64,000 nt of DNA from a virus. Positions 1-60,421 of this stretch are shown piece after piece. Position 1 is the first letter of the stretch, and each line of letters begins with the position of its first letter. The stretch is from the IMG/VR virus record IMGVR_UViG_3300015024_000001, positions 1-64,000 of that record. One strand, 5' to 3'. Made by a program: the position numbers and the translations under genes. The notes under the pieces were generated by a model that had not been told where the DNA came from, ran no database searches, and worked only from the letters and a program-made list of their open reading frames with translations.

Positions 1-405
1 TATGGGAGCAAAAACTAATCAAAAGTTTGTCCAAATTCCTACCGCTAAGCTCAAAGAACGAATTAAACAACTGTGCGAACTCTATGGAATTGAGTTCATA
101 GAAACTGAAGAAAGTTATACTTCCAAGGCTTCGTTTGTGGATAGAGACTACCTACCTACTATTGGTGCAAAACCCGATGGGTGGAAAGAATCTGGCAGAC
201 GGGTTAAGCGTGGTTTGTATCGCACTGGTTCGCTTAATTGGCACATCAATGCAGACTGTAATGGTGCTGCAAATATACTCAGAAAAGTAGCGACAATGTT
301 AGGGCTTTGCCTTAATGGAGTTGGTAGAGGGACTTTGGCAGCCCCTCAGAGAATTAAACTTTAATTACTCTGGAATCTCAGCGCTGAAGCGACTGAGAGT
401 GTCAA
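1..405 (+). mobile_element. Right part of a TnpB-only IS200/IS605-type element
   Basis: The window opens inside a TnpB gene. After its stop at 362-364 there is a bulged hairpin at 377-397 (arms CTCAG-CGCT and AGCG-A-CTGAG), then AGTGTCAA ending at 405. The complete element at 23125-24436 ends the same way: a hairpin with one bulged base followed by GTGTCAA. In this family the right end also encodes the 3' part of the TnpB guide RNA, and the flank just beyond it (from 406) would be the guide. The sequence after 405 resumes an RNA ligase coding frame, so the element appears inserted in that gene. The left end lies outside the window. Confidence 0.8.
2..364 (+). CDS. tnpB: TnpB RNA-guided nuclease, C-terminal part (partial at window edge)
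   Basis: The last 120 residues of a TnpB-family protein. Near the N-terminal side are the NQKFVQIP segment and the TEESYTSKASFVDRD block typical of cyanobacterial TnpB; residues 83-92 carry the NADCNGAANI block that holds the third RuvC aspartate. The usual CxxC zinc-ribbon pairs are not evident here, as in the ESYTSK-type subgroup. The true start is upstream of base 1; the ATG at 2 is only the first in-frame methionine. The transposase partner TnpA is not visible. The protein differs clearly from the TnpB at 23221-24366, so two unrelated insertions are present. Confidence 0.85.
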   Translation: MGAKTNQKFVQIPTAKLKERIKQLCELYGIEFIETEESYTSKASFVDRDYLPTIGAKPDGWKESGRRVKRGLYRTGSLNWHINADCNGAANILRKVATMLGLCLNGVGRGTLAAPQRIKL

Positions 406-3437: not shown

Positions 3438-3869
3438 ATGATTACCATAGAAGAGGAGTTTAAATTAGAAGCTGACATCATTGCTCTGAAGCAACAGCTT
3501 CTTGTACTAAAAGAAGGTTTGCTGAGTAAAGAAAGAGAATTGTGGTGGCTACAAAGACCACACATTGCAGACTTTGCAAATGAATGGTACTATGAGTCTA
3601 CAGATGATGGTGGTCATTCTCCTGTATGGCGACCTCATCATGTAGACCTTAGCAAGAAGTGGTTATCTATTGTTGGTAATCAAGCATTTATTGATAGACA
3701 ACTTTTCTTTATTGCAGAAAAATATGAATCTGACTGTGATGAGGGAGAGTATCCTAATCACCTTATTTGTGGGTTAGGTGAAGATATTTATTGTGAGTAC
3801 TCTAATAACCCCTATCCTAATTTTGTAGATGCACCAGATACAGTGAGGAATCCTAACTATGCAAACTAA
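3438..3869 (+). CDS. WWL-family paralogue A, coiled-coil N-terminus
   Basis: 143 residues. The first 35 form a heptad-like helix (EADIIALKQQLLVLKEGLL) followed by ELWWLQRPHIADF. The same WWL-x-x-P-(hydrophobic)-x-x-F signature occurs in the proteins at 3859-4185 and 5196-5546, so the three are paralogues. The remainder is acidic and aromatic. A CCATAGAA motif copy lies at 3445-3452. Function unknown; a helical dimer with a conserved Trp pair suggests a protein-binding module. Confidence 0.65.
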   Translation: MITIEEEFKLEADIIALKQQLLVLKEGLLSKERELWWLQRPHIADFANEWYYESTDDGGHSPVWRPHHVDLSKKWLSIVGNQAFIDRQLFFIAEKYESDCDEGEYPNHLICGLGEDIYCEYSNNPYPNFVDAPDTVRNPNYAN

Positions 3870-4185
3870 TGAACTTATTGACAAAGCACTTGAACTACAA
3901 CAACTAGTTTGGTGGCTAGATAACCCTACTATTAAATCCTTTTTTCTATCTTGTGAATGTCATAGTAATAATGAAAATCGTTCTTTTTATCTAAAGATTC
4001 AGAATAGTGAATATAATCTAACAGTAGATATTACAGCTAGATTTTTAGTAATGGTGTCTAATTATCCAATTGATATCAATAAAACACATAATGAACATGT
4101 ATACAGACCATATCCTACAGATGTTGAAATCGAGACTAGAATCGACCACATTTTATATACACTAACTTTTGACGGTACACCATAA
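3859..4185 (+). CDS. WWL-family paralogue B
   Basis: 108 residues beginning inside the end of paralogue A. The helix is shorter (NELIDKALELQQL) and leads into VWWLDNPTIKSFF, matching the signature of paralogues A and C. The C-terminal part is probably beta-rich. No enzyme motif seen. Confidence 0.6.
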   Translation: MQTNELIDKALELQQLVWWLDNPTIKSFFLSCECHSNNENRSFYLKIQNSEYNLTVDITARFLVMVSNYPIDINKTHNEHVYRPYPTDVEIETRIDHILYTLTFDGTP

Positions 4186-4186
4186 T

Positions 4187-4984
4187 ATGCGAGTTCTAAG
4201 CACAACAGCTTGTACAGGTCGTAGCTTTGACGAGTTTCTAGAGATATACCAGATCTTGAAAGAACCCCTTAATCTACAAGGGCTGGAAGTCGCAATTGGC
4301 ATAAATTTCACTACAGATGATATTCCTAAAATCAAACAAGCTAGTATCGACACAGTTTTATGGCATGATGCTTTTTGGTTTGTTGACAACCACAAACAGG
4401 AAACATACCCTACTGTAATTGCTGAGTATTTCGATTTACACGAGCTTTTCTGTCAAAACGACATTAATGTACCTTTATGGTCTATACACCCATACAAAAG
4501 TCATAGACCAGAGGCTATGTGGACAGATGCTTTATATCAAGACTTCCATATCGAATATTGGGCTGATTTTGAGTATGTATTACCTAGGGATAGTGACTGT
4601 GGATCTCATTATTACTACACATCTCGTAATTTTCAGATTGTATTTGAGAATATGTTACCTAATGCACCTTGCTATAATAATCTAGAATCTATCCTGCAAA
4701 GTAGTAGGTACAATAACTTCTGTATTGACTATAGCCATATAAATGTTTGGTGCAACAACAATCGTGAGCAGACTATTATAGAATGTTTGCTAGCTACTGA
4801 AAAAGCTGAAGAAATACACCTATCATCTAATAAAGGTCGTCGTGATTCACATGACTACATAGAAGAAAATGAGTGGTTCATGCCTTACTTAAACTCTATT
4901 GAACAGACACACAAACATCTGTATATCACCTACGAATCACTACCTATAAAATACAAAGAATATGGAAGATTGGACAAACGGTAA
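4187..4984 (+). CDS. Xylose-isomerase-like TIM-barrel protein
   Basis: 265 residues from the ATG at 4187, one base after the preceding stop; a TTG at 4169 is the alternative. The sequence has the rhythm of the AP-endonuclease-2/xylose-isomerase-like TIM barrel: a strand with VAIGINFT, then LWSIHPY, an acidic metal-ligand candidate in FENMLPN, a CIDYSHINV strand and EIHLSSNKGRRDSHD. The last resembles the His/Asp metal site of sugar-phosphate isomerase/epimerase-like proteins. Substrate unknown; a role in carbohydrate or base modification is only a guess. It overlaps the next gene by 23 bases. Confidence 0.5.
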   Translation: MRVLSTTACTGRSFDEFLEIYQILKEPLNLQGLEVAIGINFTTDDIPKIKQASIDTVLWHDAFWFVDNHKQETYPTVIAEYFDLHELFCQNDINVPLWSIHPYKSHRPEAMWTDALYQDFHIEYWADFEYVLPRDSDCGSHYYYTSRNFQIVFENMLPNAPCYNNLESILQSSRYNNFCIDYSHINVWCNNNREQTIIECLLATEKAEEIHLSSNKGRRDSHDYIEENEWFMPYLNSIEQTHKHLYITYESLPIKYKEYGRLDKR

Positions 4985-5195: not shown

Positions 5196-5546
5196 ATGAG
5201 TAACTTTATTGGCATCCAGATCGAGTCCGTAGGAAGAAACATCAGTTTATTGGAATCTAAACTCAAAGAGCAGAAACGACAGTTGGTGTTATGGCAAAGA
5301 CAGAAGTGGTGGTTAGAACATCCCACTGTATCTTACTTTACTGCACGTACAACTTGGGAAACTAACTATGGACATTCAGAATGGGAACAAGAGCTTTCCT
5401 TCTACGTTGATTCTGTTTTTCAGTTAGATAACTCTAGCATAGATTTTCAGAATCGTGGTTTGTTTGATAGTTATCCTCCCTTAGAAGAGGATGTAAGAGA
5501 TGACGATGAATTTGTAACATATAGAAATCTATTTTTATGCACATAA
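5196..5546 (+). CDS. WWL-family paralogue C
   Basis: 116 residues. An N-terminal helix (SLLESKLKEQKRQLVLWQRQ) runs into KWWLEHPTVSYF, the signature shared with 3438-3869 and 3859-4185. A strong GAGGAGG ribosome site precedes the ATG. The 3' end overlaps the capsid-like mini-gene by 10 bases. Function unknown. Confidence 0.65.
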   Translation: MSNFIGIQIESVGRNISLLESKLKEQKRQLVLWQRQKWWLEHPTVSYFTARTTWETNYGHSEWEQELSFYVDSVFQLDNSSIDFQNRGLFDSYPPLEEDVRDDDEFVTYRNLFLCT

Positions 5547-5863
5547 GACAATGGCTACAAGAAGACTTACAAAAACGGCAGTGTGCTATTGTAATCAACG
5601 AAACATTATGGCAACTGAGTAAGACCGTAGAAAAAGAAGTGGAGGAGAGCTTTTATCAGGAACTGTTAGACCTCAATTATCCTGATGAAACTGAAACCTA
5701 TATGGCTGCAAATTTAGCAGGAGCGAAAGCTAGAAATATACCACTTCAAAACACTATGAATTCTGATGGTGGGATTATTGTTGGTTACAACCATGAGCTT
5801 GCCTCCATACTACTTGTCAATAATTTACAAAGTTTAGTGAGAGAAAAATATGCAAATATTTAG
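5537..5863 (+). CDS. Miniature paralogue of the major capsid protein
   Basis: 108 residues matching two separated parts of the major capsid protein encoded at 57587-58720. Residues 6-27 align with capsid residues 7-28 (shared W-L-x-E-x-L-Q-x-R-Q and E-T-L-W-x-L). Residues 64-103 align with capsid 110-148 (shared A-R-x-I-x-x-Q-N-x-M-x-x-D-G, then I-x-G-x-N and N-L-x-x-L-V-R). By eye about half of the first block and two fifths of the second are identical. The capsid core between and after them is absent. It lies in the early block, far from the structural genes. It may act as a capsid-assembly partner, decoy or size regulator, but that is inference. A dispersed CCGTAGAA copy is at 5625. Confidence 0.75.
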   Translation: MHIRQWLQEDLQKRQCAIVINETLWQLSKTVEKEVEESFYQELLDLNYPDETETYMAANLAGAKARNIPLQNTMNSDGGIIVGYNHELASILLVNNLQSLVREKYANI

Positions 5864-6026
5864 AGTAGGTATGTTTGATGTACAACGTCGTTTACCTAAC
5901 CAAGAGGTGCATCTTGGTTTTAACACAGAGGAAGATTGTCTAGTATGGATTGATGCTAACAATCGTAATTGGGCAGAATACAATACACCAAGTCATTATT
6001 TTATAGGTTTATTACATGCAGATTGA
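5850..6026 (+). CDS. Unknown 58-residue protein
   Basis: Starts within the end of the capsid-like mini-gene (14-base overlap) and ends 11 bases into thyX. The sequence has a mixed alpha/beta look with a conserved-looking EEDCLVWIDA segment. Nothing is recognised; the nested overlaps support translation. Confidence 0.55.
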   Translation: MQIFRVGMFDVQRRLPNQEVHLGFNTEEDCLVWIDANNRNWAEYNTPSHYFIGLLHAD

Positions 6027-6660
6027 ACTACTATCGCATTTTGGTGACGATACTATGGTGGCAAATGTTGCCAGAGTTTCATATGCTAAAGAAGCATCTA
6101 ATTACACTGAAGAACAAAATGCTAAACTGATCAACTACCTATACAAACATGGTCACACAAGTTGTTTTAGACATCCTCAGTTACAGTTTAGAATTAAGTG
6201 TCCAATTTACGTTGAACGCCAGTTGTTTAAACACCAGACTGGAATTTCTGTTAACTCTATCTCAGGTAGATATGTTGATTTCAGTGACTCTTACTACACT
6301 ATTGACCACTGGCGTAGACAGTCAAAGTCATCTAAACAAGGTAGTGATGGGTTGTTAAGTCCTGACCAGCAACTAACAGCCAAGACCGTAGAAGAAAAGG
6401 TTCTGACTATCTGTAAACAGGCATACCAAGATTTACTAGCTATGGGTGTAGCAAAAGAACAAGCACGGTCTGTACTACCCTTGTCACTAGAAACCGAGTT
6501 TATTTGGACTGGTTCACTTCTAGCTTTCTTTCATATGTGTGACTTACGACTGAAATCTGATGCTCAAGCTGAAACTAGGTGGATTGTGGAGCAGATGTTA
6601 CTACAGATAGTAGAGCTTAAAGACTTCACACACAGTTTACAAGCTTGGTTCGGTAATTAG
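6016..6660 (+). CDS. thyX: Flavin-dependent thymidylate synthase
   Basis: Makes dTMP from dUMP using FAD, NADPH and methylene-tetrahydrofolate. Of 214 residues, 67-86 carry the ThyX signature region as ERQLFKHQ followed by TGISVNSISGRY. The usual RHRxxS core reads KHQ here, an unusual variant of the flavin/substrate site, while the downstream Ser, Asn and Arg remain. The C-terminal block has ARSVLP, then LRLKSDAQAETR, as in the family. It pairs with the upstream dUTPase and the dNMP kinase as a thymidylate supply route. A CCGTAGAAGAAAAGG motif copy at 6386 encodes TVEEK. Confidence 0.88.
   Translation: MQIELLSHFGDDTMVANVARVSYAKEASNYTEEQNAKLINYLYKHGHTSCFRHPQLQFRIKCPIYVERQLFKHQTGISVNSISGRYVDFSDSYYTIDHWRRQSKSSKQGSDGLLSPDQQLTAKTVEEKVLTICKQAYQDLLAMGVAKEQARSVLPLSLETEFIWTGSLLAFFHMCDLRLKSDAQAETRWIVEQMLLQIVELKDFTHSLQAWFGN
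6384..6400 (+). repeat. Dispersed motif CCRTAGAA + purine run (exemplar copy)
   Basis: One of at least 33 copies found by eye. Copies reading CCRTAGAA on + start at 3445, 5625, 6386, 8725, 12001, 14416, 31107, 31742, 38040, 42996, 50466, 54936, 56493, 61603. Copies reading TTCTAYGG on + start at 2745, 7708, 8085, 10248, 14081, 15996, 17986, 21482, 23054, 29662, 32172, 34852, 37723, 40999, 43933, 46413, 48219, 52640, 63500. Most are followed on the motif strand by 5-7 purines, mainly A. They occur in both orientations and in different codon phases (encoding TVEEK, FYG, LLW, LLR, PSTV or FSST), so the conservation is at the DNA level. Confidence 0.75.
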
Positions 6661-13780: not shown

Positions 13781-13950
13781 AAATTGAACTGAAATGGCTA
13801 CCTAATGGACGTAAGACACCTGCACTACAACAAGTACACACCTATGCCGAGCTAGAGTTATTGGTAGTCAAGGACTTGGATATTGGCGATGGTGTGTTTT
13901 ATATTACAGAAGGTGGTCATATAGTAGCCGAGGCAAAGAGAACAGTATGA
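13777..13950 (+). CDS. Unknown 57-residue protein
   Basis: ATGA overlaps on both sides, ending at the first C5-methyltransferase start. Sequence suggests a small alpha/beta fold (YAELELLVVKDLDIGDG). Unknown role. Confidence 0.5.
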   Translation: MKIELKWLPNGRKTPALQQVHTYAELELLVVKDLDIGDGVFYITEGGHIVAEAKRTV

Positions 13951-14774
13951 ATATTCTTTCACTTTTTGATGGTTTATCGTGCGCCCAGATAGCCTTACAA
14001 CGAGCAGGTATACAGTATGATAATTACTATGCATCTGAAATAGACAAATATGCAATCAAAGTCACACAACACCATTTTCCTTCTACGGTTCAACTTGGGG
14101 ATGTACAAAATATTAAAGCTGTAGACTTACCACAAATTGACCTATTATGCGGTGGTTTTCCTTGCCAATCCTTCTCTAGCGCTGGTAAAGGTTTAGGATT
14201 TAATGACCCACGAGGTCAACTATTCTGGCATACGGTACGTTTGTTGAAAGAACTACAACCTCGTTATTTTCTATTTGAAAACGTAATCATGTCTAAAGTA
14301 AACAGAGATGTAATCACAGAAGCATTAGGTGTGGATTGTATAGAGATTGATAGCGCAGTACTAACAGCACAACATAGGCGTAGATTATATTGGACGAATA
14401 TACCTTTCTCGAAAACCATAGAAAATAAAGGTGTAGTGATTGCCGATATACTAAACTCTGAACCAGATCCTTCCTGTTATCTTTCTGTCAAAGGTATTGC
14501 ACGTATCACAAATAGTGCTTATGTCAAAAAATTGGTAACAAAGGATACAGAAAAAACTGGTACATTGCTGTCTGGCTATTATAAGATAGGTGGTGGTCAT
14601 TACTATGTACAAGATGACAAAGGTATTCGTATGTTTACACCTACAGAGTGTGAAAAACTACAAACACTTGATGTAGGATATACCTCTATAATCAGTAAAA
14701 CTCAACGTTATAAAAGCATTGGTAATAGTTGGACAGTAGATGTCATAGCACATATTTTTAAAGGCTTATTATGA
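13947..14774 (+). CDS. DNA C5-cytosine methyltransferase 1
   Basis: 275 residues with the ordered motifs of Dcm-type enzymes: I LSLFDGLSCAQIAL (4-17), IV GGFPCQSFSSAGKGLGF with catalytic Cys73, VI FENV, VIII QHRRRLYWTN, a target-recognition region, IX-like LQTLDVGYT, and X SIGNSWTVDVIA. All key residues are present. It probably methylates phage DNA against host restriction; the target sequence cannot be inferred. Its first 27 bases recur at the start of the next gene and its last 44 bases recur at that gene's end. Confidence 0.9.
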   Translation: MNILSLFDGLSCAQIALQRAGIQYDNYYASEIDKYAIKVTQHHFPSTVQLGDVQNIKAVDLPQIDLLCGGFPCQSFSSAGKGLGFNDPRGQLFWHTVRLLKELQPRYFLFENVIMSKVNRDVITEALGVDCIEIDSAVLTAQHRRRLYWTNIPFSKTIENKGVVIADILNSEPDPSCYLSVKGIARITNSAYVKKLVTKDTEKTGTLLSGYYKIGGGHYYVQDDKGIRMFTPTECEKLQTLDVGYTSIISKTQRYKSIGNSWTVDVIAHIFKGLL

Positions 14775-14797
14775 ATATTCTTTCACTTTTTGATGGT
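14730..14797 (+). repeat. Junction of tail repeat (44 bp) and head repeat (27 bp) between the methyltransferases
   Basis: Bases 14730-14773 are identical to 15635-15678. Bases 14771-14797 are identical to 13947-13973, overlapping in the ATG. The two methyltransferase genes therefore share head and tail sequence blocks in direct orientation, and recombination between them would remove one gene exactly. Confidence 0.85.
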
Positions 14798-15682
14798 CTA
14801 AGCTGTGGTAGGATAGCTTTAGATCGTATAGGTATTCCTATTGATAATTATTTTTCATCTGAAATAAAAGAAGCAGCATTAGTTGTTGCTAATCATAATT
14901 ATCCACAAGATACTAAAAATAGATTAGGGGACATTACAAAAATAAAAGATTCTGACTTACCTAATATTGATTTATTGATTGGGGGTAGTCCATGCCAAAA
15001 TTTCTCTATAGCTAATAGAGAGAGAAAAGGTTTACAAGGTATAAAGAGTGGTTTGTTTTACGAGTATGTCCGACTGCTAGAAGAGACAAAACCCAAGTAT
15101 TTTTTACTTGAAAATGTTAGAATGGAAAAACAACATCAAAACGTAATTAGTTCTATACTAGGTTGTGAACCTATTATTATTAATTCATCACTAGTAGCGC
15201 CACAGTTACGTCATAGATTGTATTGGACTAATATACCATCTGTCACTGTACCAATAGCTATATGTGTAAGCTTAAATGATTATCTACAAACAGGATATTC
15301 AGATCGTACTAAAGCAAGAGCTTTGTTGGAATCAGATTCACGACCCCTAGCAACACCTATAAAGATGTGTCACAGATATTTCGGCACAGGTTTTTCTACT
15401 CTTGTGTTTAAATCTGAATACCACTACTTACAATGTAAACAACATTACACAGCATTTTTTAAAGGTAAAACAGCTTTAGAAATTGATGCTCTTATTACTG
15501 ATAGTATGGATTTATCGGTATATAATGGTGTTCGTTATATGACCAATCGAGAACGTGAGTATTGTCAAACAGTACCTCAAGGATATACAGATGTTTTGAC
15601 ACAGAATGATGCAGCATCAGTGTTAGGTGATGGCTGGACAGTAGATGTCATAGCACATATTTTTAAAGGCTTATTATGTTAG
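14771..15682 (+). CDS. DNA C5-cytosine methyltransferase 2
   Basis: 303 residues. Motifs: I LSLFDGLSCGRIAL, IV GGSPCQNFSIANRERKG with catalytic Cys75, VI LENV, VIII LRHRLYWTN, IX-like CQTVPQGYT, and X GDGWTVDVIA. Outside the shared ends it is clearly diverged from enzyme 1, especially between motifs VIII and IX, so it should recognise another site. Starts in the ATGA overlap with enzyme 1. No cognate restriction gene is present, consistent with orphan protective methylation. Confidence 0.9.
   Translation: MNILSLFDGLSCGRIALDRIGIPIDNYFSSEIKEAALVVANHNYPQDTKNRLGDITKIKDSDLPNIDLLIGGSPCQNFSIANRERKGLQGIKSGLFYEYVRLLEETKPKYFLLENVRMEKQHQNVISSILGCEPIIINSSLVAPQLRHRLYWTNIPSVTVPIAICVSLNDYLQTGYSDRTKARALLESDSRPLATPIKMCHRYFGTGFSTLVFKSEYHYLQCKQHYTAFFKGKTALEIDALITDSMDLSVYNGVRYMTNREREYCQTVPQGYTDVLTQNDAASVLGDGWTVDVIAHIFKGLLC
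15635..15678 (+). repeat. Second copy of the 44-bp methyltransferase tail repeat
   Basis: Identical to 14730-14773. The repeat's final ATG starts methyltransferase 2 in the first copy and a 30-codon frame (15676) in this copy, which suggests a modular cassette. Confidence 0.85.
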
Positions 15683-23124: not shown

Positions 23125-24436
23125 GGAAAAACGGGTTTAAAACCCCGTGCTTCTAGCACGGCTTTATATCAATAAGCTACATCTTATGTTAGAATATACT
23201 ACATAAGATTAGATAAATCCATGTTAGTTCTCGAAGCAAAACTAAAAGGCAAAGCAGAGCAGTACAACCTCATTGATGAGGCTATCCGTACCGCTCTGTT
23301 TTGTCGCAACAAGGCTTTGAGGTACTGGATAGATAATCGTGACACTGGCAGATATGACCTCAATAAGTTCATGGCTGTGCTTGCCAAGGATTTTGATTTT
23401 GCAAATAAATTAAACTCTCAAGCAAGACAATCAAGTGCTGAAAGAGCATGGTCTGGTATCGCTAGATTTTTTGACAACTGCAAAAAGAAAGTATCAGGTA
23501 AGAAGGGATATCCAAGATTTAAGAAACGTGGTCAATCGGTTGAATACAAACAAACTGGATGGAAGCTTTCTGAAGACAGGAAATACCTAACTTTAACTGA
23601 TGGTTTTAAGATTGGCAAAGTCAAATTAGTCGGTAGCCGTGACCTTAACTTCTATCAGATTGAGCAAATTAAACGAGTCAGGCTGGTTCGCCGTGCTGAC
23701 GGATATTACGCTCAGTTCTGTGTCGATGTTGACCGCAGGGAAGATTTAGAGCCATCTAAATCTACGATTGGTTTAGATGTTGGATTGAATCATTTCTATA
23801 CCGATAGCAATGGTCAAACAGTCAAAAATCCTAGATTCCTTAGAAAGTCAGAACGTCAACTCAAAAAGTTGCAACGTAAAGTTTCTAAGCGTAAAAAGGG
23901 ATCAGTTAATCGCAGAAAAGCAATTAAGTGGTTAGCAAGAAAGCATTTGCAAGTAAGTAGGCAGCGTAAAGACTTTGCGGTAAAAACTGCAAGGTGCGTA
24001 GTTCGGTCTAACGACCTGATTGCCTATGAAGATTTGCAAGTACGGAATATGGTCAAGAATCATAAATTAGCCAAGTCAATATCTGATGCAAGCTGGTCGA
24101 TGTTTCGTGATTGGGTTGAGTATTTTGGCAAAGTGTTTGGTAAGGTCACGATTGCAGTACCACCACAATATACAAGTCAGAATTGCTCAACTTGCGGGAC
24201 TTTAATCAAGAAATCGCTGAGTGAGCGCACTCATCAATGCAGTCATTGCGGTAGGGTTTTAGACCGCGACCACAATGCTGCATTGAATATCTTGGCTATT
24301 GGTTTAAATAGGGTAGGGCTTACCCAAATTTCTACGCCTGTGGAGAGTTCGACCTCTGCCTTGTAGATTTAGGTCTACTTGGTAAGTTGTCTCGCCGAAT
24401 CAGGAATCCTCACGCCTTCAGGCTGAGGAGTGTCAA
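23125..24436 (+). mobile_element. Complete TnpB-only IS200/IS605-type element
   Basis: Left end: overlapping hairpins GGGTTT-A-AAACCC (23133-23145) and CCGTGC-TTCTA-GCACGG (23145-23161). Right end: bulged hairpin TCCTCA-C-GCC-TTCA-GGC-TGAGGA (24407-24429) followed by GTGTCAA (24430-24436). No inverted terminal repeats and no TnpA, as in IS1341-like elements that depend on a TnpA elsewhere. The right end should encode the TnpB guide RNA. The exact left boundary is approximate. It lies exactly between the convergent early and late blocks; the portal stop codon lies at its right edge. Confidence 0.8.
23221..24366 (+). CDS. tnpB: TnpB RNA-guided endonuclease, intact
   Basis: 381 residues. RuvC-like catalytic residues are present: D186 in TIGLDVGLNHF, E270 in LIAYEDLQV, D350 in VLDRDHNAALNI. 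The zinc ribbon has C322 and C325 (NCSTCG) with C340 and C343 (CSHCG). The N-terminal half has the basic, helical RNA-binding character of the family (KKVSGKKGYPRFKKRGQ). It should cut DNA guided by a right-end-derived RNA. Base use is more GC-rich than the phage genes, fitting recent entry from a cyanobacterial genome. Confidence 0.9.
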   Translation: MLVLEAKLKGKAEQYNLIDEAIRTALFCRNKALRYWIDNRDTGRYDLNKFMAVLAKDFDFANKLNSQARQSSAERAWSGIARFFDNCKKKVSGKKGYPRFKKRGQSVEYKQTGWKLSEDRKYLTLTDGFKIGKVKLVGSRDLNFYQIEQIKRVRLVRRADGYYAQFCVDVDRREDLEPSKSTIGLDVGLNHFYTDSNGQTVKNPRFLRKSERQLKKLQRKVSKRKKGSVNRRKAIKWLARKHLQVSRQRKDFAVKTARCVVRSNDLIAYEDLQVRNMVKNHKLAKSISDASWSMFRDWVEYFGKVFGKVTIAVPPQYTSQNCSTCGTLIKKSLSERTHQCSHCGRVLDRDHNAALNILAIGLNRVGLTQISTPVESSTSAL

Positions 24437-50305: not shown

Positions 50306-50695
50306 TTATAATACCATAAAATCTTCTTTTGTTTTTATTTCTATAGGTAGTTTAAGATTATCTATAATTGACATACAAACACCTATATATCTATAATCTA
50401 TAATATCGTTTTTATTTTCTTTAGCAAATATTATAATGACATTCTTAGAGCGTGGAAAATAATGACCATAGAAGAGAATTTGTCCAACAGCGTGTTTGAT
50501 ATTTGACCAGTGTTTAGCTTCATACAAAATATCATCTGTTAATATATCTATATAGCCCACAGGTGTATATACTTCGCGTTGATAACCAATACCTTTCTCT
50601 TCTAAGGTTTGACATATACTGTCCACAAATAGTCGTTCATGTGGATTTTTAGGTTTTTGTAATAACAGACGTGGAGGTTTGGGTAGGTCTATCAT
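50306..50695 (-). CDS. PD-(D/E)XK nuclease-like protein
   Basis: 129 residues. VYTPVGYIDILTDDILYEAKHW supplies Asp50, Glu59 and Lys61 of a D-(E)xK site, followed by the helix NIKHAVGQILFYGHYF typical of restriction-like nucleases. VIIIFAKEN fits a later strand. It is encoded among virion genes and overlaps the next start by 4 bases. It might process packaged or ejected DNA, or defend against competitors. Confidence 0.6.
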   Translation of the reverse strand: MIDLPKPPRLLLQKPKNPHERLFVDSICQTLEEKGIGYQREVYTPVGYIDILTDDILYEAKHWSNIKHAVGQILFYGHYFPRSKNVIIIFAKENKNDIIDYRYIGVCMSIIDNLKLPIEIKTKEDFMVL

Positions 50696-51147
50696 TTTTT
50701 CCTATTACCGAATTTCTTTTTATACATATCGTCAATGTGATCATTGATGCCAACAATATGAATATTTCGTTTTCCTACTTTTTTATCTAAGCTAGACAAA
50801 GCTCCACTAAAACGTTCATCATATTGTGAAGCTGGATTACCAACAAGATGTTCAACATGAATAGACTTTGCTGTTTTTATAGGTACTTCAGCAATACCTG
50901 TTACTACTTTTCTTTTCTTTCCACTTTTTAGATCAGTATAAGTTTTCTTTAAAAACTCTAGTTTAGGTTTTGTATTAAGGTGCTGTCTAAGATTAGTAGA
51001 ACCACGCATTGCATTAATTACATCTAACCTATCTTCATTGATAGGATTATGTTCATTCCTAAGAAGATCTTTAGTTGTAGATCCCCATTTATTCAGAACC
51101 TTCATCCAATCAGGATCTTTATAGCCGAAGTCACTCATTAAATACAT
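50692..51147 (-). CDS. Basic paralogue 1 with MSDFG leader
   Basis: 151 residues from the ATG at 51147: MYLMSDFGYKDPDWMKVLNK. Paralogous to 53467-53883: both have leader, KW, LKKxYxD, R(K/R)VVTG, LVGNP, F-x-GA, and a final D-x-(M/L)Y-x-KK-x-G. Highly basic overall. HVEHLVGNPAS is reminiscent of a nuclease or ADP-ribosyl-type pocket, but no family is certain. Likely packaged. Confidence 0.55.
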   Translation of the reverse strand: MYLMSDFGYKDPDWMKVLNKWGSTTKDLLRNEHNPINEDRLDVINAMRGSTNLRQHLNTKPKLEFLKKTYTDLKSGKKRKVVTGIAEVPIKTAKSIHVEHLVGNPASQYDERFSGALSSLDKKVGKRNIHIVGINDHIDDMYKKKFGNRKK

Positions 51148-51152
51148 AATGG

Positions 51153-51497
51153 TCACCAATTATACTTAGTTGCGTAATAGCTTGACCCAAAAGGATCATC
51201 TTTAGCTACCGAACCATCTTTCTTTTTTATACCAGCAAATCGTTTCTGAAAATTATCACGTCGTTTATCATCTTTATGTACAAGATAATCCTCACGTGTA
51301 TTATCACCCCAAGCTACAGTTTTTTTACGTCCATCAGAACGTTCTACAGTAACTTGATATTTCTTACCTTTTCTTGTAGAAAGTGTTGGCTCAGATATTT
51401 TATGTTCCATATCATTGTATTTAACAGTGTTAGCTTTATTTACTAACAATTTATCTACTGAAGCTACTTCAGCAAAATCACACAGAATAAAGATCAT
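51153..51497 (-). CDS. Basic late protein with LCDFA leader and viral small-basic domain
   Basis: 114 residues: leader MIFILCDFAEV, then KGKKYQVTVERSDGRKKTVA, then WGDNTREDYLVHKDDKRRDNF with an aromatic end (YYATKYNW). The core resembles the small basic domain common in large DNA viruses and phages that reads FG-x(n)-DY-x-x-H-x-D-x-x-RR (DUF5754-like, from memory). Function of that domain is unknown. Confidence 0.5.
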   Translation of the reverse strand: MIFILCDFAEVASVDKLLVNKANTVKYNDMEHKISEPTLSTRKGKKYQVTVERSDGRKKTVAWGDNTREDYLVHKDDKRRDNFQKRFAGIKKKDGSVAKDDPFGSSYYATKYNW

Positions 51498-52354: not shown

Positions 52355-53470
52355 CTATTTATTTCTCTTATTTTGTAAACTAGAACTGTTCTGTGAAAAC
52401 CAATTGCGTATACCTTTCTGTTTAGGTTTCTTGCTTGTGTAAGAACCACCTTCAGCTTTGTACTTACGTGTTGCTATAGATGCTTTAACAGCTGACCATT
52501 GCCCAGCCACACCTCCTTTATCAGAAGCTTTTGTTTGTGCTACTATGGCACGCCATCTAGGGCTGTTTTTCTCTTTACCAAAATCTACATACTCCCGAGC
52601 TTTATCATACACACCTTGCAAGTCACCGTCACCTTTCTTTTCTATGGTTCTAATTTTCTTGCGTAGTTTAAAAGGTATTTGTGACCACTTTTCTGTTGGT
52701 ATTGATATATGTTGTGAATGTCCAGCATCAAAGTCACATAGAAGGAAAGTGGTACGGGAGAAACCAATACCGAGTGTCTCATACACAGGATGTTTATATC
52801 CAGCTTTGGTTTTTATATATCCAGCAGGTTCTTTGGTGTCAGGATCTATATTAATCTTCTTTTTACCTTTTAATGTGGCTATAACTTGCCTAGGTTCATC
52901 TCCCTGTGTAGGTAGATATAAACCTCCTTTCTTAGCATCAGCACTGTACTTAACATTCTTAGCATAAGTATGTTTACCACCAGATGTTACACTGATAATA
53001 GTTGAAGATTCTTTTAACTTTTTAAGAAGTTTTTCATACTCATCTTTATCTATTTTACCAGCTAAAAAATCGTTAATTACTTTACGTTTATCTACTGTCT
53101 CATTGATTTTAGATATGTTAGATAAATCCAAAGGTTTATCACTTTCTAAGTCTGGATCCCATCTACTTTTACTACGATAAAGATTTGATCGTGTTGTTGC
53201 TGGCTCTAATTTGTTGTTGGAAGGTCTTATAGATTTAGCATAGTCATCTACTTTCATTGTTGGTCTAGCACCAACAACTGATGTAAAAGCTTCGCCATGA
53301 ATATCAACTATAGAAGACTTAGCATTTTTGTTTGTTTTTAAAGGTAAAGGAAGACGAAATACCTTACCTTCAGAACCCATCCAGTCTCTAGTTAATCGCT
53401 TACCATCACGACTTAAACCTGCTGGTCTAGGTACTAAATTCTTCATTTTCTTTAATTGTTCAGGTGTCAT
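52355..53470 (-). CDS. Two-part basic late protein with internal LLCDF element
   Basis: 371 residues. The N-terminal part (about 1-240) is basic, with VFRLPLPLKT and SITVTSGGKHTYAKN-like strands. At about residue 245 the leader-like TTFLLCDFDAG appears without a start codon nearby, followed by a second domain (VYDKAREYVDFGKEKNSPRW, GGVAGQWSAVKASIATRKY). This looks like a fusion of a leaderless protein with a leader-bearing one, or a polyprotein cut at the leader by the maturation protease. Confidence 0.5.
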   Translation of the reverse strand: MTPEQLKKMKNLVPRPAGLSRDGKRLTRDWMGSEGKVFRLPLPLKTNKNAKSSIVDIHGEAFTSVVGARPTMKVDDYAKSIRPSNNKLEPATTRSNLYRSKSRWDPDLESDKPLDLSNISKINETVDKRKVINDFLAGKIDKDEYEKLLKKLKESSTIISVTSGGKHTYAKNVKYSADAKKGGLYLPTQGDEPRQVIATLKGKKKINIDPDTKEPAGYIKTKAGYKHPVYETLGIGFSRTTFLLCDFDAGHSQHISIPTEKWSQIPFKLRKKIRTIEKKGDGDLQGVYDKAREYVDFGKEKNSPRWRAIVAQTKASDKGGVAGQWSAVKASIATRKYKAEGGSYTSKKPKQKGIRNWFSQNSSSLQNKRNK

Positions 53471-53883
53471 ACTCTTTTACTTCCCAATTTTTTGTTGTAT
53501 AGACGATCAACAGCATTGTTGATAGGATCAATTTCTATATTTTTAGTACCAGCTCTTTTACGTACAGAATCCACTGCACCCTTGAACTTATTATCTCTCT
53601 TTGAGAAAGGATTACCAACTAGATTTCGTACTATCAGACGGTCAAGTTTATCTTTACCTTGCATCATACCAGTAACTACTCTACGATTACGTCCTTGAGT
53701 ATCTTTATATTCTTTCTTAAGTAGTTCTAGTCCTTGTCTATTACGCATACTGTCCAACATCATTTGTCGATGGTAAGCTGTAGTATCATTAAATGGCTCT
53801 ATTGATTTACTTATACGTGACCATTTATCCAATATTTTATTATAATTCGGTTCTTTAAAAGCAAACTCAGCTAGTAGGTACAT
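53467..53883 (-). CDS. Basic paralogue 2 with LAEFA leader
   Basis: 138 residues: MYLLAEFAFKEPNYNKILDK. Shares at least eight sequence blocks with 50692-51147, including KW near 20, LLKKEYKD, RRVVTG and LVGNP. The two genes lie 2.3 kb apart, so an old duplication. Strongly basic, predicted internal virion protein. Confidence 0.55.
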   Translation of the reverse strand: MYLLAEFAFKEPNYNKILDKWSRISKSIEPFNDTTAYHRQMMLDSMRNRQGLELLKKEYKDTQGRNRRVVTGMMQGKDKLDRLIVRNLVGNPFSKRDNKFKGAVDSVRKRAGTKNIEIDPINNAVDRLYNKKLGSKRV

Positions 53884-57586: not shown

Positions 57587-58720
57587 CTAAGAAATCTTAC
57601 GACTCAAACCAAATTTACTGCATTCAACAGAAACTGGTAAGATTCTAGCAAGTACTTCACTTACATCCTTGCTTTGAACAAGTAGATCTTGATATGTGCG
57701 TTGATATATACCAGCTGCAGCATTATTTTCAATAACTCCACCCATAGCTTTAAGGATCTTACCTTTCTTAATGAAACAGTAGCGATCAGTATTCAAAAAG
57801 CGAATATTACCACCAGAAGTACCGGGAGTTACGTCCATTTCTGTACGTTCATCAAATGTACTAATTTTAGGTATACCACGAGCTTCAAGAACAGCTTGCA
57901 GACGCTCAGGAGCAACAACACCTTGTAATGCAGCACCACCATCTAAGAATAAGCTAGAAGCTGCTTCTTTAGTAGATTTCTGTTGTAACAATTCTTGCCA
58001 AACCTTACGTGACATAACAATGGCATCAGGAGCCATACCAGTTGAATCATAATACAAGTTAATGTCATTATAGATGTCTTGAATACCATTAGCTGTTGCA
58101 CGATTAGCAGCTGTCCAAGGAATATCAACAACAGCAGTAGGAAAGTGATCTCCTGCTGTAATCAATGAAGAATCTTTCCAATCTAGGTCAACACTCATCT
58201 GAGTACGAGGATCTACATAATTAACAGCACCAAATTGAATAACTTGCCAAGTCATATATTCCAATAGTTCGCCAACAGAACGTACTAGACCTGAGAGATT
58301 ACCAAATAATAAAGCAGCAAGACTGTTATTAGAACCTTCAATGACTTTACCATCAGCACCCATCATATTTTGTACATAGATACCACGAGCTTCTGCTAGT
58401 TCAATAGCATCACGTAGATTCCATTGGTCTTCTTCGTCATATTCATGTCTAAGACCAACCTTGAAGGATTCAGCAGTGATCTTACGAAATTGACCCTTAC
58501 GAGTTGAAGGGATAGCTCCGTTAGGTGCTACAACAGAAGCCATCGTATTAATCTGCTTTGTAATGTAAGCTAAGAAGTTACGATTATCGTATGTCTTAGT
58601 CTCTACATATTGATCTAACCATTTAGATCTTTGTTGAAGTTCCCACAAAGTTTCGTCAACAACCATATCTGCTTGACGGCTTTGGAGTTCTTCGTTTAGC
58701 CAAGTGCTAATATAAGACAT
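57587..58720 (-). CDS. Major capsid protein (protein E-like)
   Basis: 377 residues. Segment order fits the HK97-fold major capsid protein E group: N-terminal arm MSYISTWLNEELQSRQADMV; loop region AEARGIYVQNMMGADGKVIE; VNYVDPRTQMSVDLDWKDSS; PDAIVMSRKVWQELLQQ; LEARGIPKISTFDERTE; and RFLNTDRYCFIKKGKI. AGGAG ribosome site before the ATG. No large N-terminal delta domain, so a separate scaffold is expected. The protein at 5537-5863 copies residues 7-28 and 110-148. Confidence 0.85.
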   Translation of the reverse strand: MSYISTWLNEELQSRQADMVVDETLWELQQRSKWLDQYVETKTYDNRNFLAYITKQINTMASVVAPNGAIPSTRKGQFRKITAESFKVGLRHEYDEEDQWNLRDAIELAEARGIYVQNMMGADGKVIEGSNNSLAALLFGNLSGLVRSVGELLEYMTWQVIQFGAVNYVDPRTQMSVDLDWKDSSLITAGDHFPTAVVDIPWTAANRATANGIQDIYNDINLYYDSTGMAPDAIVMSRKVWQELLQQKSTKEAASSLFLDGGAALQGVVAPERLQAVLEARGIPKISTFDERTEMDVTPGTSGGNIRFLNTDRYCFIKKGKILKAMGGVIENNAAAGIYQRTYQDLLVQSKDVSEVLARILPVSVECSKFGLSRKIS

Positions 58721-59626: not shown

Positions 59627-60421
59627 TTATTTATTAAATAAACCAATCGCTTGCAAAGAACGTTTAGCAGTCTCATCCATATGAGAAGAACGCTCTACAG
59701 CAGCAAAATCAACATCTACATTTACATATTGATTAAAGTCCACCAACTTGCCACAACGCTTAAACAATTCAAGAGCAAATTCTATCGCGTGTAGTTGTGT
59801 ATCTATACTGACTCCATTTTTTGAAGCTAACATAGAAAAAGAAGCAACCATATCTTCTTCACGATTAAAGTTAGCCACCAAAGCTTCTTTAGCAATAGGA
59901 GCTAACCAGCCTTGTTCAACTCCGAACTCAGCCCTAGCATTGATATTAGCTAGACGATCTTTAACAGCACTAAATGTTTCAACAGTTGCTAAACGAGCCT
60001 CAAGTTCAGCAACACGTGTGTCACCTGCGGAAAAAGAAGCTGTATTACGTGTATAAGCAGAATAAGCACCAACAGCTTCATATTCTTCTACGTCTTCATA
60101 CTCTTCTTCATACTCATCTTCTAATTCTGCTGTTAAATCAATTAGATTAGCAGAATCCATAGCAATAGCTAACAAACCATTATAAACATCTCGGTTATTA
60201 GTTTGATCAAATACCGATGCCATGATTTCAAAATCTTCTTGTTCAATATCAATTTCAGAAGCTTCGATTAGACCGACGATTTGCTCATCATCTACTTCAA
60301 AACCTTGCTCTTGGAAAGCTGTTGCGATAGTATACAAACCATCATCAACAGTTTCATATTCATCATTGATTAGATCCAATAAGGACTGACCAAATAAATT
60401 TCCTGCTTGAATATTATACAT
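59627..60421 (-). CDS. Acidic helical protein, scaffold candidate
   Basis: 264 residues, strongly acidic in the first half (ELEDEYEEEYEDVEEYEAVG), with coiled coil RVAELEARLATVETFSAVKD and helical C-terminus. Acidity, helices and position between protease and capsid genes fit a scaffolding protein. RNTASFSAG near the middle contains an A-S-F-S site like possible processing sites of neighbours. Confidence 0.55.
   Translation of the reverse strand: MYNIQAGNLFGQSLLDLINDEYETVDDGLYTIATAFQEQGFEVDDEQIVGLIEASEIDIEQEDFEIMASVFDQTNNRDVYNGLLAIAMDSANLIDLTAELEDEYEEEYEDVEEYEAVGAYSAYTRNTASFSAGDTRVAELEARLATVETFSAVKDRLANINARAEFGVEQGWLAPIAKEALVANFNREEDMVASFSMLASKNGVSIDTQLHAIEFALELFKRCGKLVDFNQYVNVDVDFAAVERSSHMDETAKRSLQAIGLFNK

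What the first reader, a model, noticed from the sequence alone, without database searches (positions are those of the whole stretch)
5537..5863. A miniature copy of the major capsid protein in the early region
The 108-residue product aligns with two separated segments of the capsid protein at 57587-58720 (mini 6-27 with capsid 7-28, mini 64-103 with capsid 110-148), each with many identities including W-L-x-E-x-L-Q-x-R-Q and A-R-x-I-x-x-Q-N-x-M-x-x-D-G. It lacks the folded capsid core and lies about 52 kb from it among early genes, embedded in overlapping genes. This looks like a domesticated fragment that could bind capsid subunits: an assembly timer, a size-control factor, a decoy for host capsid-sensing defence, or an inhibitor of a competing phage.
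Basis: seen in the sequence. Interest (0 to 1): 0.8.

Follow-up and report, generated by a model that had tools for sequence, protein, structure and literature searches.

The report
Shrunken capsid-protein copy in a cyanophage
A virus of the Pseudanabaena-phage type carries, far from its shell genes, a small conserved gene that is a cut-down copy of its own shell protein, keeping the pieces that in other phages hold the assembly scaffold or neighbouring shell units; it probably regulates or mimics the shell, but what it does has not been tested.

Summary
The 108-aa product of 5537-5863 (+) is a paralogue of the phage's own major capsid protein (MCP, 57587-58720, minus strand). Shuffle tests give z=18 for the whole protein and z=13 for each segment, and it is the only strong hit among 455 window ORFs. 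The key new fact is that a related phage (IMG/VR contig of 138,722 bp, MCP 90% identical) has the same gene between the same neighbours (136 aa, 47% identical). The reading frames survive at near-saturated synonymous divergence and the N-terminal 28 residues are under strong purifying selection, so it is not debris. None of 20 records with more distant MCPs, nor PA-SR01, shows one.

The two conserved segments are the MCP N-terminal helix and the strip just before and at the start of the spine helix. The E-loop, the rest of the P-domain and the A-domain are gone. In solved capsids these elements bind scaffold (SPP1) or clasp each other and a neighbouring subunit (P74-26). Best mechanism: an interface mimic that binds scaffold or MCP and modulates assembly (about 40%). 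Rivals: a new unrelated function, or a decoy for capsid-sensing defence. The paralogy is near certain; the function is inferred.

The parts
5537..5863 (+). mini-MCP gene: 108-aa truncated, E-loop-less paralogue of the major capsid protein
   Evidence: syntenic 136-aa homologue in L023:6001-6411
5537..5620 (+). block 1, residues 1-28: MCP N-arm helix (MHIRQWLQEDLQKRQCAIVINETLWQLS), matches MCP 2-29; about 71% identical to the other mini, 50% to MCP
   Evidence: N-arm profile finds only MCP and mini above threshold in the genome
5621..5740 (+). middle, residues 29-68: replaces the MCP E-loop region; length differs between the two phages (E-loop absent here, a possible remnant in G001)
5741..5860 (+). 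block 2, residues 69-108: hairpin before the spine helix plus the first half of the spine helix, matches MCP about 116-152; last codons overlap the next gene
57587..58720 (-). major capsid protein gene (377 aa, HK97 fold), the parent family
   Evidence: Foldseek best matches P23-45/P74-26, an E. coli prophage capsid protein, lambda
59627..60421 (-). candidate scaffold protein (264 aa, acidic, helical appearance), a possible partner of the mini; assignment by position and composition only
5196..5546 (+). upstream overlapping gene (116 aa), absent from the other phage; shares the ATGCACATAA stop/start overlap with the mini
5850..6026 (+). downstream overlapping gene (58 aa), kept in the other phage (54 aa)

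Best explanation
Identity (near certain): the gene is a duplicated, C-terminally truncated copy of this phage lineage's major capsid protein, kept as a separate small protein in the nucleotide-metabolism cluster. It keeps the N-arm helix and the hairpin plus start of the spine helix. The E-loop is lost in the window phage and eroded in its relative; the A-domain and the rest of the P-domain are lost in both. Mechanism (inferred): it works as an interface mimic. It presents the capsid protein's N-arm and spine-start face, which binds scaffold in SPP1 and forms the N-arm/S-loop clasp between subunits in P74-26, but it cannot build a shell. Made from the cluster with early-type genes, it would occupy scaffold or newly made capsid subunits and so delay, limit or redirect assembly, of its own shell or of a co-infecting relative's.
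For: Paralogy. Conserved gene: a homologue of 136 aa, 47% identical, lies in the same place in a phage whose MCP is 90% identical. The N-terminal 28 residues have dN/dS about 0.10 at near-saturated synonymous sites; over the whole gene dN/dS is about 0.46, against 0.06 for MCP and 0.09-0.14 for neighbours. A neutral 103-codon frame would stay open in 0.2% of simulations at d=1. Anatomy: predicted secondary structure of MCP (N helix 3-30, helix 97-111, hairpin 119-127, helices from 132) matches the mini's elements apart from one new helix. The mini alone gives a confident best model (pLDDT 89, pTM 0.77). [quoted passage not shown] In P74-26 the S-loop at the start of the spine helix locks the N-arm, and the N-arm contacts the subunit across the two-fold (PMC6775164). 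Our MCP's best fold matches include P23-45 and P74-26. Precedent for a capsid-protein homologue that redirects assembly: Ccm (PMC8569155).
Against: No binding, expression or phenotype data. The sample is two genomes. The mini evolves about five times faster in amino acids than MCP, which fits relaxed or changed constraint as well as conflict. Only one of five mini models is that confident (others 76, 62, 57, 54) and its alignment was made mostly of MCP rows. The MCP model itself is poor (pLDDT 55). Profile alignment to P74-26 MCP is weak (E=0.006, probability 6%), so the S-loop equivalence rests on order and position. A late function for a gene in an apparently early cluster needs an explanation.
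Confidence: 0.4

Rival explanations
1. Neofunctionalised small early protein: the capsid fragment was recruited as a stable helical scaffold for an unrelated early job (host takeover, regulation), and its original partners no longer matter.
For: Lies with dUTPase, ThyX and unknown small genes; whole-gene dN/dS 0.46; middle part unrelated between the two phages; new mini-specific residues conserved in both copies.
Against: The part that stays most conserved is the part still most like MCP (N-arm residues 1-28, dN/dS 0.10, 50% identical to MCP at saturated synonymous distance), which points to a kept MCP-like interface.
Confidence: 0.3
2. Decoy for a host defence that senses capsid protein: made before MCP, it occupies the sensor without activating it.
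For: CapRel-SJ46 is modelled to touch the P-domain beta-sheet and spine helix, with escape changes at MCP 114/115 (PMC9712102), a region overlapping what the mini keeps. A TIR-based system that senses phage capsids is also reported (PMC11312562, title and abstract only). Inferred early position and fast evolution fit an arms race.
Against: No such defence is known for the host, and the host itself is unknown. CapRel also contacts the A-domain, which the mini lacks. A fragment holding the recognised face might trigger rather than block the sensor. The paper search found no precedent.
Confidence: 0.17
3. Weapon against co-infecting related phages: it poisons a competitor's capsid assembly while the phage's own MCP is insensitive.
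For: Dominant interference by capsid-protein homologues and size switchers is known in satellites (Ccm, Rcm).
Against: The mini is closest to the clade's own MCPs (46% for the window copy, versus 22-39% for other MCPs), so self-poisoning is the obvious risk. No evidence of self-immunity.
Confidence: 0.1
4. Decaying remnant of a duplicated capsid gene with no function.
For: Fast overall divergence and length change in the middle.
Against: Two intact, in-frame, syntenic copies; strong constraint on the N-terminus; neutral survival of the frame improbable.
Confidence: 0.03

Closest known systems
Major capsid protein of the same phage and PA-SR01/Pam2-type cyanophages (phrog_29, PF03864)
   Same: Homologous N-arm helix and hairpin plus start of the spine helix, same order
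   Different: Lacks the E-loop, the rest of the P-domain and the A-domain; different locus; no family model hits it
Ccm of SaPIbov5, capsid-protein homologue that redirects phi12 assembly (PMC8569155)
   Same: A second gene for a capsid-protein homologue, encoded outside the head operon
   Different: Ccm is a full HK97-fold protein of a satellite, incorporated in the shell; the mini is a fragment encoded by the phage itself
Capsid size switchers CpmB, Rcm, Sid, TcaP
   Same: Possible functional analogy: small proteins that compete at scaffold or capsid interfaces
   Different: Not known to derive from the capsid protein; no sequence relation to the mini was tested
Capsid regions sensed by CapRel-SJ46 (spine-helix face)
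   Same: The mini keeps part of the spine-helix region
   Different: The trigger is the full capsid protein; no stand-alone phage decoy of this kind was found in the paper search

Membership tests
HK97-fold major capsid protein (phrog_29 / PF03864) | Significant sequence homology to the MCP family | tested here: met
   Mini vs own MCP z=18.4; a combined mini/MCP profile finds both
HK97-fold major capsid protein (phrog_29 / PF03864) | Match to the curated family model | tested here: not met
   No Pfam hit and no capsid PHROG
HK97-fold major capsid protein (phrog_29 / PF03864) | E-loop, P-domain sheet and A-domain present | tested here: not met
   Alignment ends at MCP residue about 147-152; E-loop region missing
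Ccm-type capsid redirector | Homologue of the affected phage's capsid protein | tested here: met
Ccm-type capsid redirector | Full-length HK97 fold with N-terminal delta domain | tested here: not met
   108 aa; no P/A core and no delta-length N-terminal extension
Ccm-type capsid redirector | Changes capsid size or is incorporated in the shell | not testable with these tools
   Needs expression and electron microscopy
Capsid-sensing defence decoy | Binds the sensor and prevents activation by MCP | not testable with these tools
   No host or sensor known

The most novel reading that the evidence does not exclude
A phage has turned the interface module of its own capsid protein (N-arm, hairpin and spine start, without E-loop or core) into a free-standing protein made from an early-type gene cluster that controls assembly or blinds capsid-sensing immunity, a regulatory capsid fragment not described before in tailed phages as far as the paper search showed.
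Probability: 0.45. Interest if true: 0.8.

Novelty: new variant of a known kind. Interest (0 to 1): 0.55.

Why it matters
Capsid proteins are sensed by bacterial immunity and hijacked by satellites through exposed faces of the same fold. A phage that makes a conserved, core-less piece of its own capsid protein from an early-type cluster would give a direct handle on how assembly is timed or how capsid sensing is evaded, and shows a capsid gene feeding the birth of a new small gene. It could be tested with two or three purified proteins.

Tried and rejected
Chance similarity: rejected. Another family for the mini: no PHROG, Pfam, PDB-sequence or Foldseek match. Remnant or pseudogene: disfavoured. 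Wider family: IMG/VR pattern scans with either mini, their alignment and neighbouring genes returned only the one other phage; species genomes, plasmids and phage records gave none; twenty records with more distant MCPs and PA-SR01 have no mini, though several are partial contigs. The first shuffle script failed on gapped alignment rows and was rerun; the first tree script failed on thread count and was rerun. The phylogeny places both minis together (99.3/100), but whether they join the clade's MCPs is weakly supported (74/46), so origin within the clade rests mainly on identity and three shared clade-specific residues. That the middle of the relative's mini is an eroded E-loop is only suggestive (98 of 3000 shuffles as good). 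Promoter scan was uninformative, with fewer sites than shuffles.

Full report
What was checked. ORF 5537-5863 (+) encodes a 108-residue protein. The gene at 57587-58720 is on the minus strand and encodes a 377-residue HK97-fold major capsid protein: phrog_29 E=5e-21, PF03864 E=5e-10. Foldseek best matches are the P23-45/P74-26 capsid, an E. coli prophage capsid protein and lambda, on a modest model. The window is part of a 131,991-bp virus record. The nearest named phages by MCP are Pseudanabaena phages PA-SR01 and Pam2 at 32% identity.

Similarity is real. BLASTP E=1e-13. Against 2000 shuffles the whole protein has z=18.4 and each of the two blocks z about 13; the middle has none. All-against-all comparison of ORFs in the whole record shows no other strong match between this + strand cluster and the late structural block; the remaining paralogue pairs include transposase copies, tandem methylases and two tail-region genes. 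Separate N-arm and spine profiles find only MCP and mini above threshold.

It is a conserved gene. A related phage (IMGVR_UViG_3300034073_002480, 138,722 bp, MCP 90% identical) has a 136-residue version at the same place. It sits after the same 75-residue gene (with the 116-residue gene of the window phage missing) and before the same 54-58-residue gene, with the same 10-nt and 14-nt overlaps. The two minis are 47% identical overall and about 71% in the first 28 residues. dN/dS is about 0.46 over the gene and 0.10 in the N-terminal block, against 0.06 for MCP and 0.09-0.14 for neighbours; synonymous sites are near saturation, so these are rough. Simulated neutral drift leaves a 103-codon frame open in under 1% of runs at d=0.5 and 0.2% at d=1. 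Part of the conserved C-terminal end (REKYA) may be held by the overlapping start of the next gene.

Distribution. The mini was not found outside these two phages. Scans of IMG/VR, species genomes, phage records and plasmids were negative. PA-SR01 and twenty records with more distant MCPs have none; several of these are partial contigs. Both minis group together; the window copy is 46% identical to the clade's own MCPs in the aligned blocks and 22-39% to other MCPs. The simplest history is duplication of the clade's MCP before these two phages split, truncation near residue 150, then loss or erosion of the E-loop. The relative's copy may still hold an E-loop remnant (YITK, IP and G in register; 98 of 3000 shuffles as good, so only suggestive).

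Anatomy. Predicted secondary structure of MCP: N helix 3-30, strand 39-44, helix 46-56, unstructured E-loop about 57-95, helix 97-111, hairpin 119-127, then helices 132-139 and 142-163 at the spine. The mini: helices 2-7 and 10-26, a new helix 33-44, helix 50-66, hairpin 73-81, helix 86-106, with pLDDT 89 in the best of five models. So the two 'separated segments' are the N-arm and the strip leading into and starting the spine helix, and the part removed between them is the E-loop region. Weak profile alignment to P74-26 MCP pairs our residues from 94 on with its 110-239, including YMTWQVIQFG with WLTWQVMRTG in the spine.

How it could work. [quoted passage not shown] In P74-26 the S-loop at the start of the spine helix locks the N-arm, and the N-arm contacts the subunit across the two-fold (PMC6775164). 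The mini keeps these elements and lacks what is needed to build a shell. I therefore favour an interface mimic that occupies scaffold or capsid subunits. The candidate scaffold is the acidic 264-residue protein at 59627-60421, by position and composition only. Shown: paralogy, conservation, which segments are kept. Inferred: fold details, partners, timing, effect.

Rivals. A new unrelated early function (30%), a decoy for capsid-sensing defence such as CapRel, whose contact lies on the spine-helix face (PMC9712102; 17%), a weapon against related phages (10%), or debris (3%). The closest precedent for a capsid-protein homologue that alters assembly is Ccm of SaPIbov5 (PMC8569155), a full-length satellite protein, so the mini is not a member of that group although it may work like it. 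The literature search found no description of a core-less capsid fragment in a phage's early-type genes, within an open-access library only.

Noticed in passing
window 2-364, 23221-24366; record 104980-106164, 129878-131125: Several IS605-type TnpB (OrfB) copies in this phage record; the two tested have OrfB_IS605/TNB domains. The piece at the very start of the window is 97% identical to the end of the copy near the other contig end. 133-aa minus-strand ORFs beside two copies may be TnpA (not tested).
   Followed up: partly
window 13947-14774 and 14771-15682: Two tandem overlapping C5-cytosine DNA methylase genes, 39% identical to each other.
   Followed up: partly
window 3438-3869, 3859-4185, 5196-5546; L023:4100-5009: Small proteins sharing a 'WWL..P' stretch by eye, probably a local gene family; the copy just upstream of the mini (5196-5546) is absent from the related phage.
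   Followed up: no
window 6016-6660 and L023:6541-7392: The ThyX-type gene (PF02511) near the mini is a clearly different version in the two phages, as if exchanged in place.
   Followed up: partly
window 4187-4984; L023:5011-5808: 265-aa protein, 72% identical in the two phages, with no PHROG, Pfam or phage-record match.
   Followed up: partly
window 50692-51159 and 53467-53883: Two paralogous structural-region proteins, 37% identical.
   Followed up: no
window 5537-5546; L023:6001-6010: The overlap ATGCACATAA (stop of the upstream gene, start of the mini) is identical in both phages although the upstream genes differ.
   Followed up: partly
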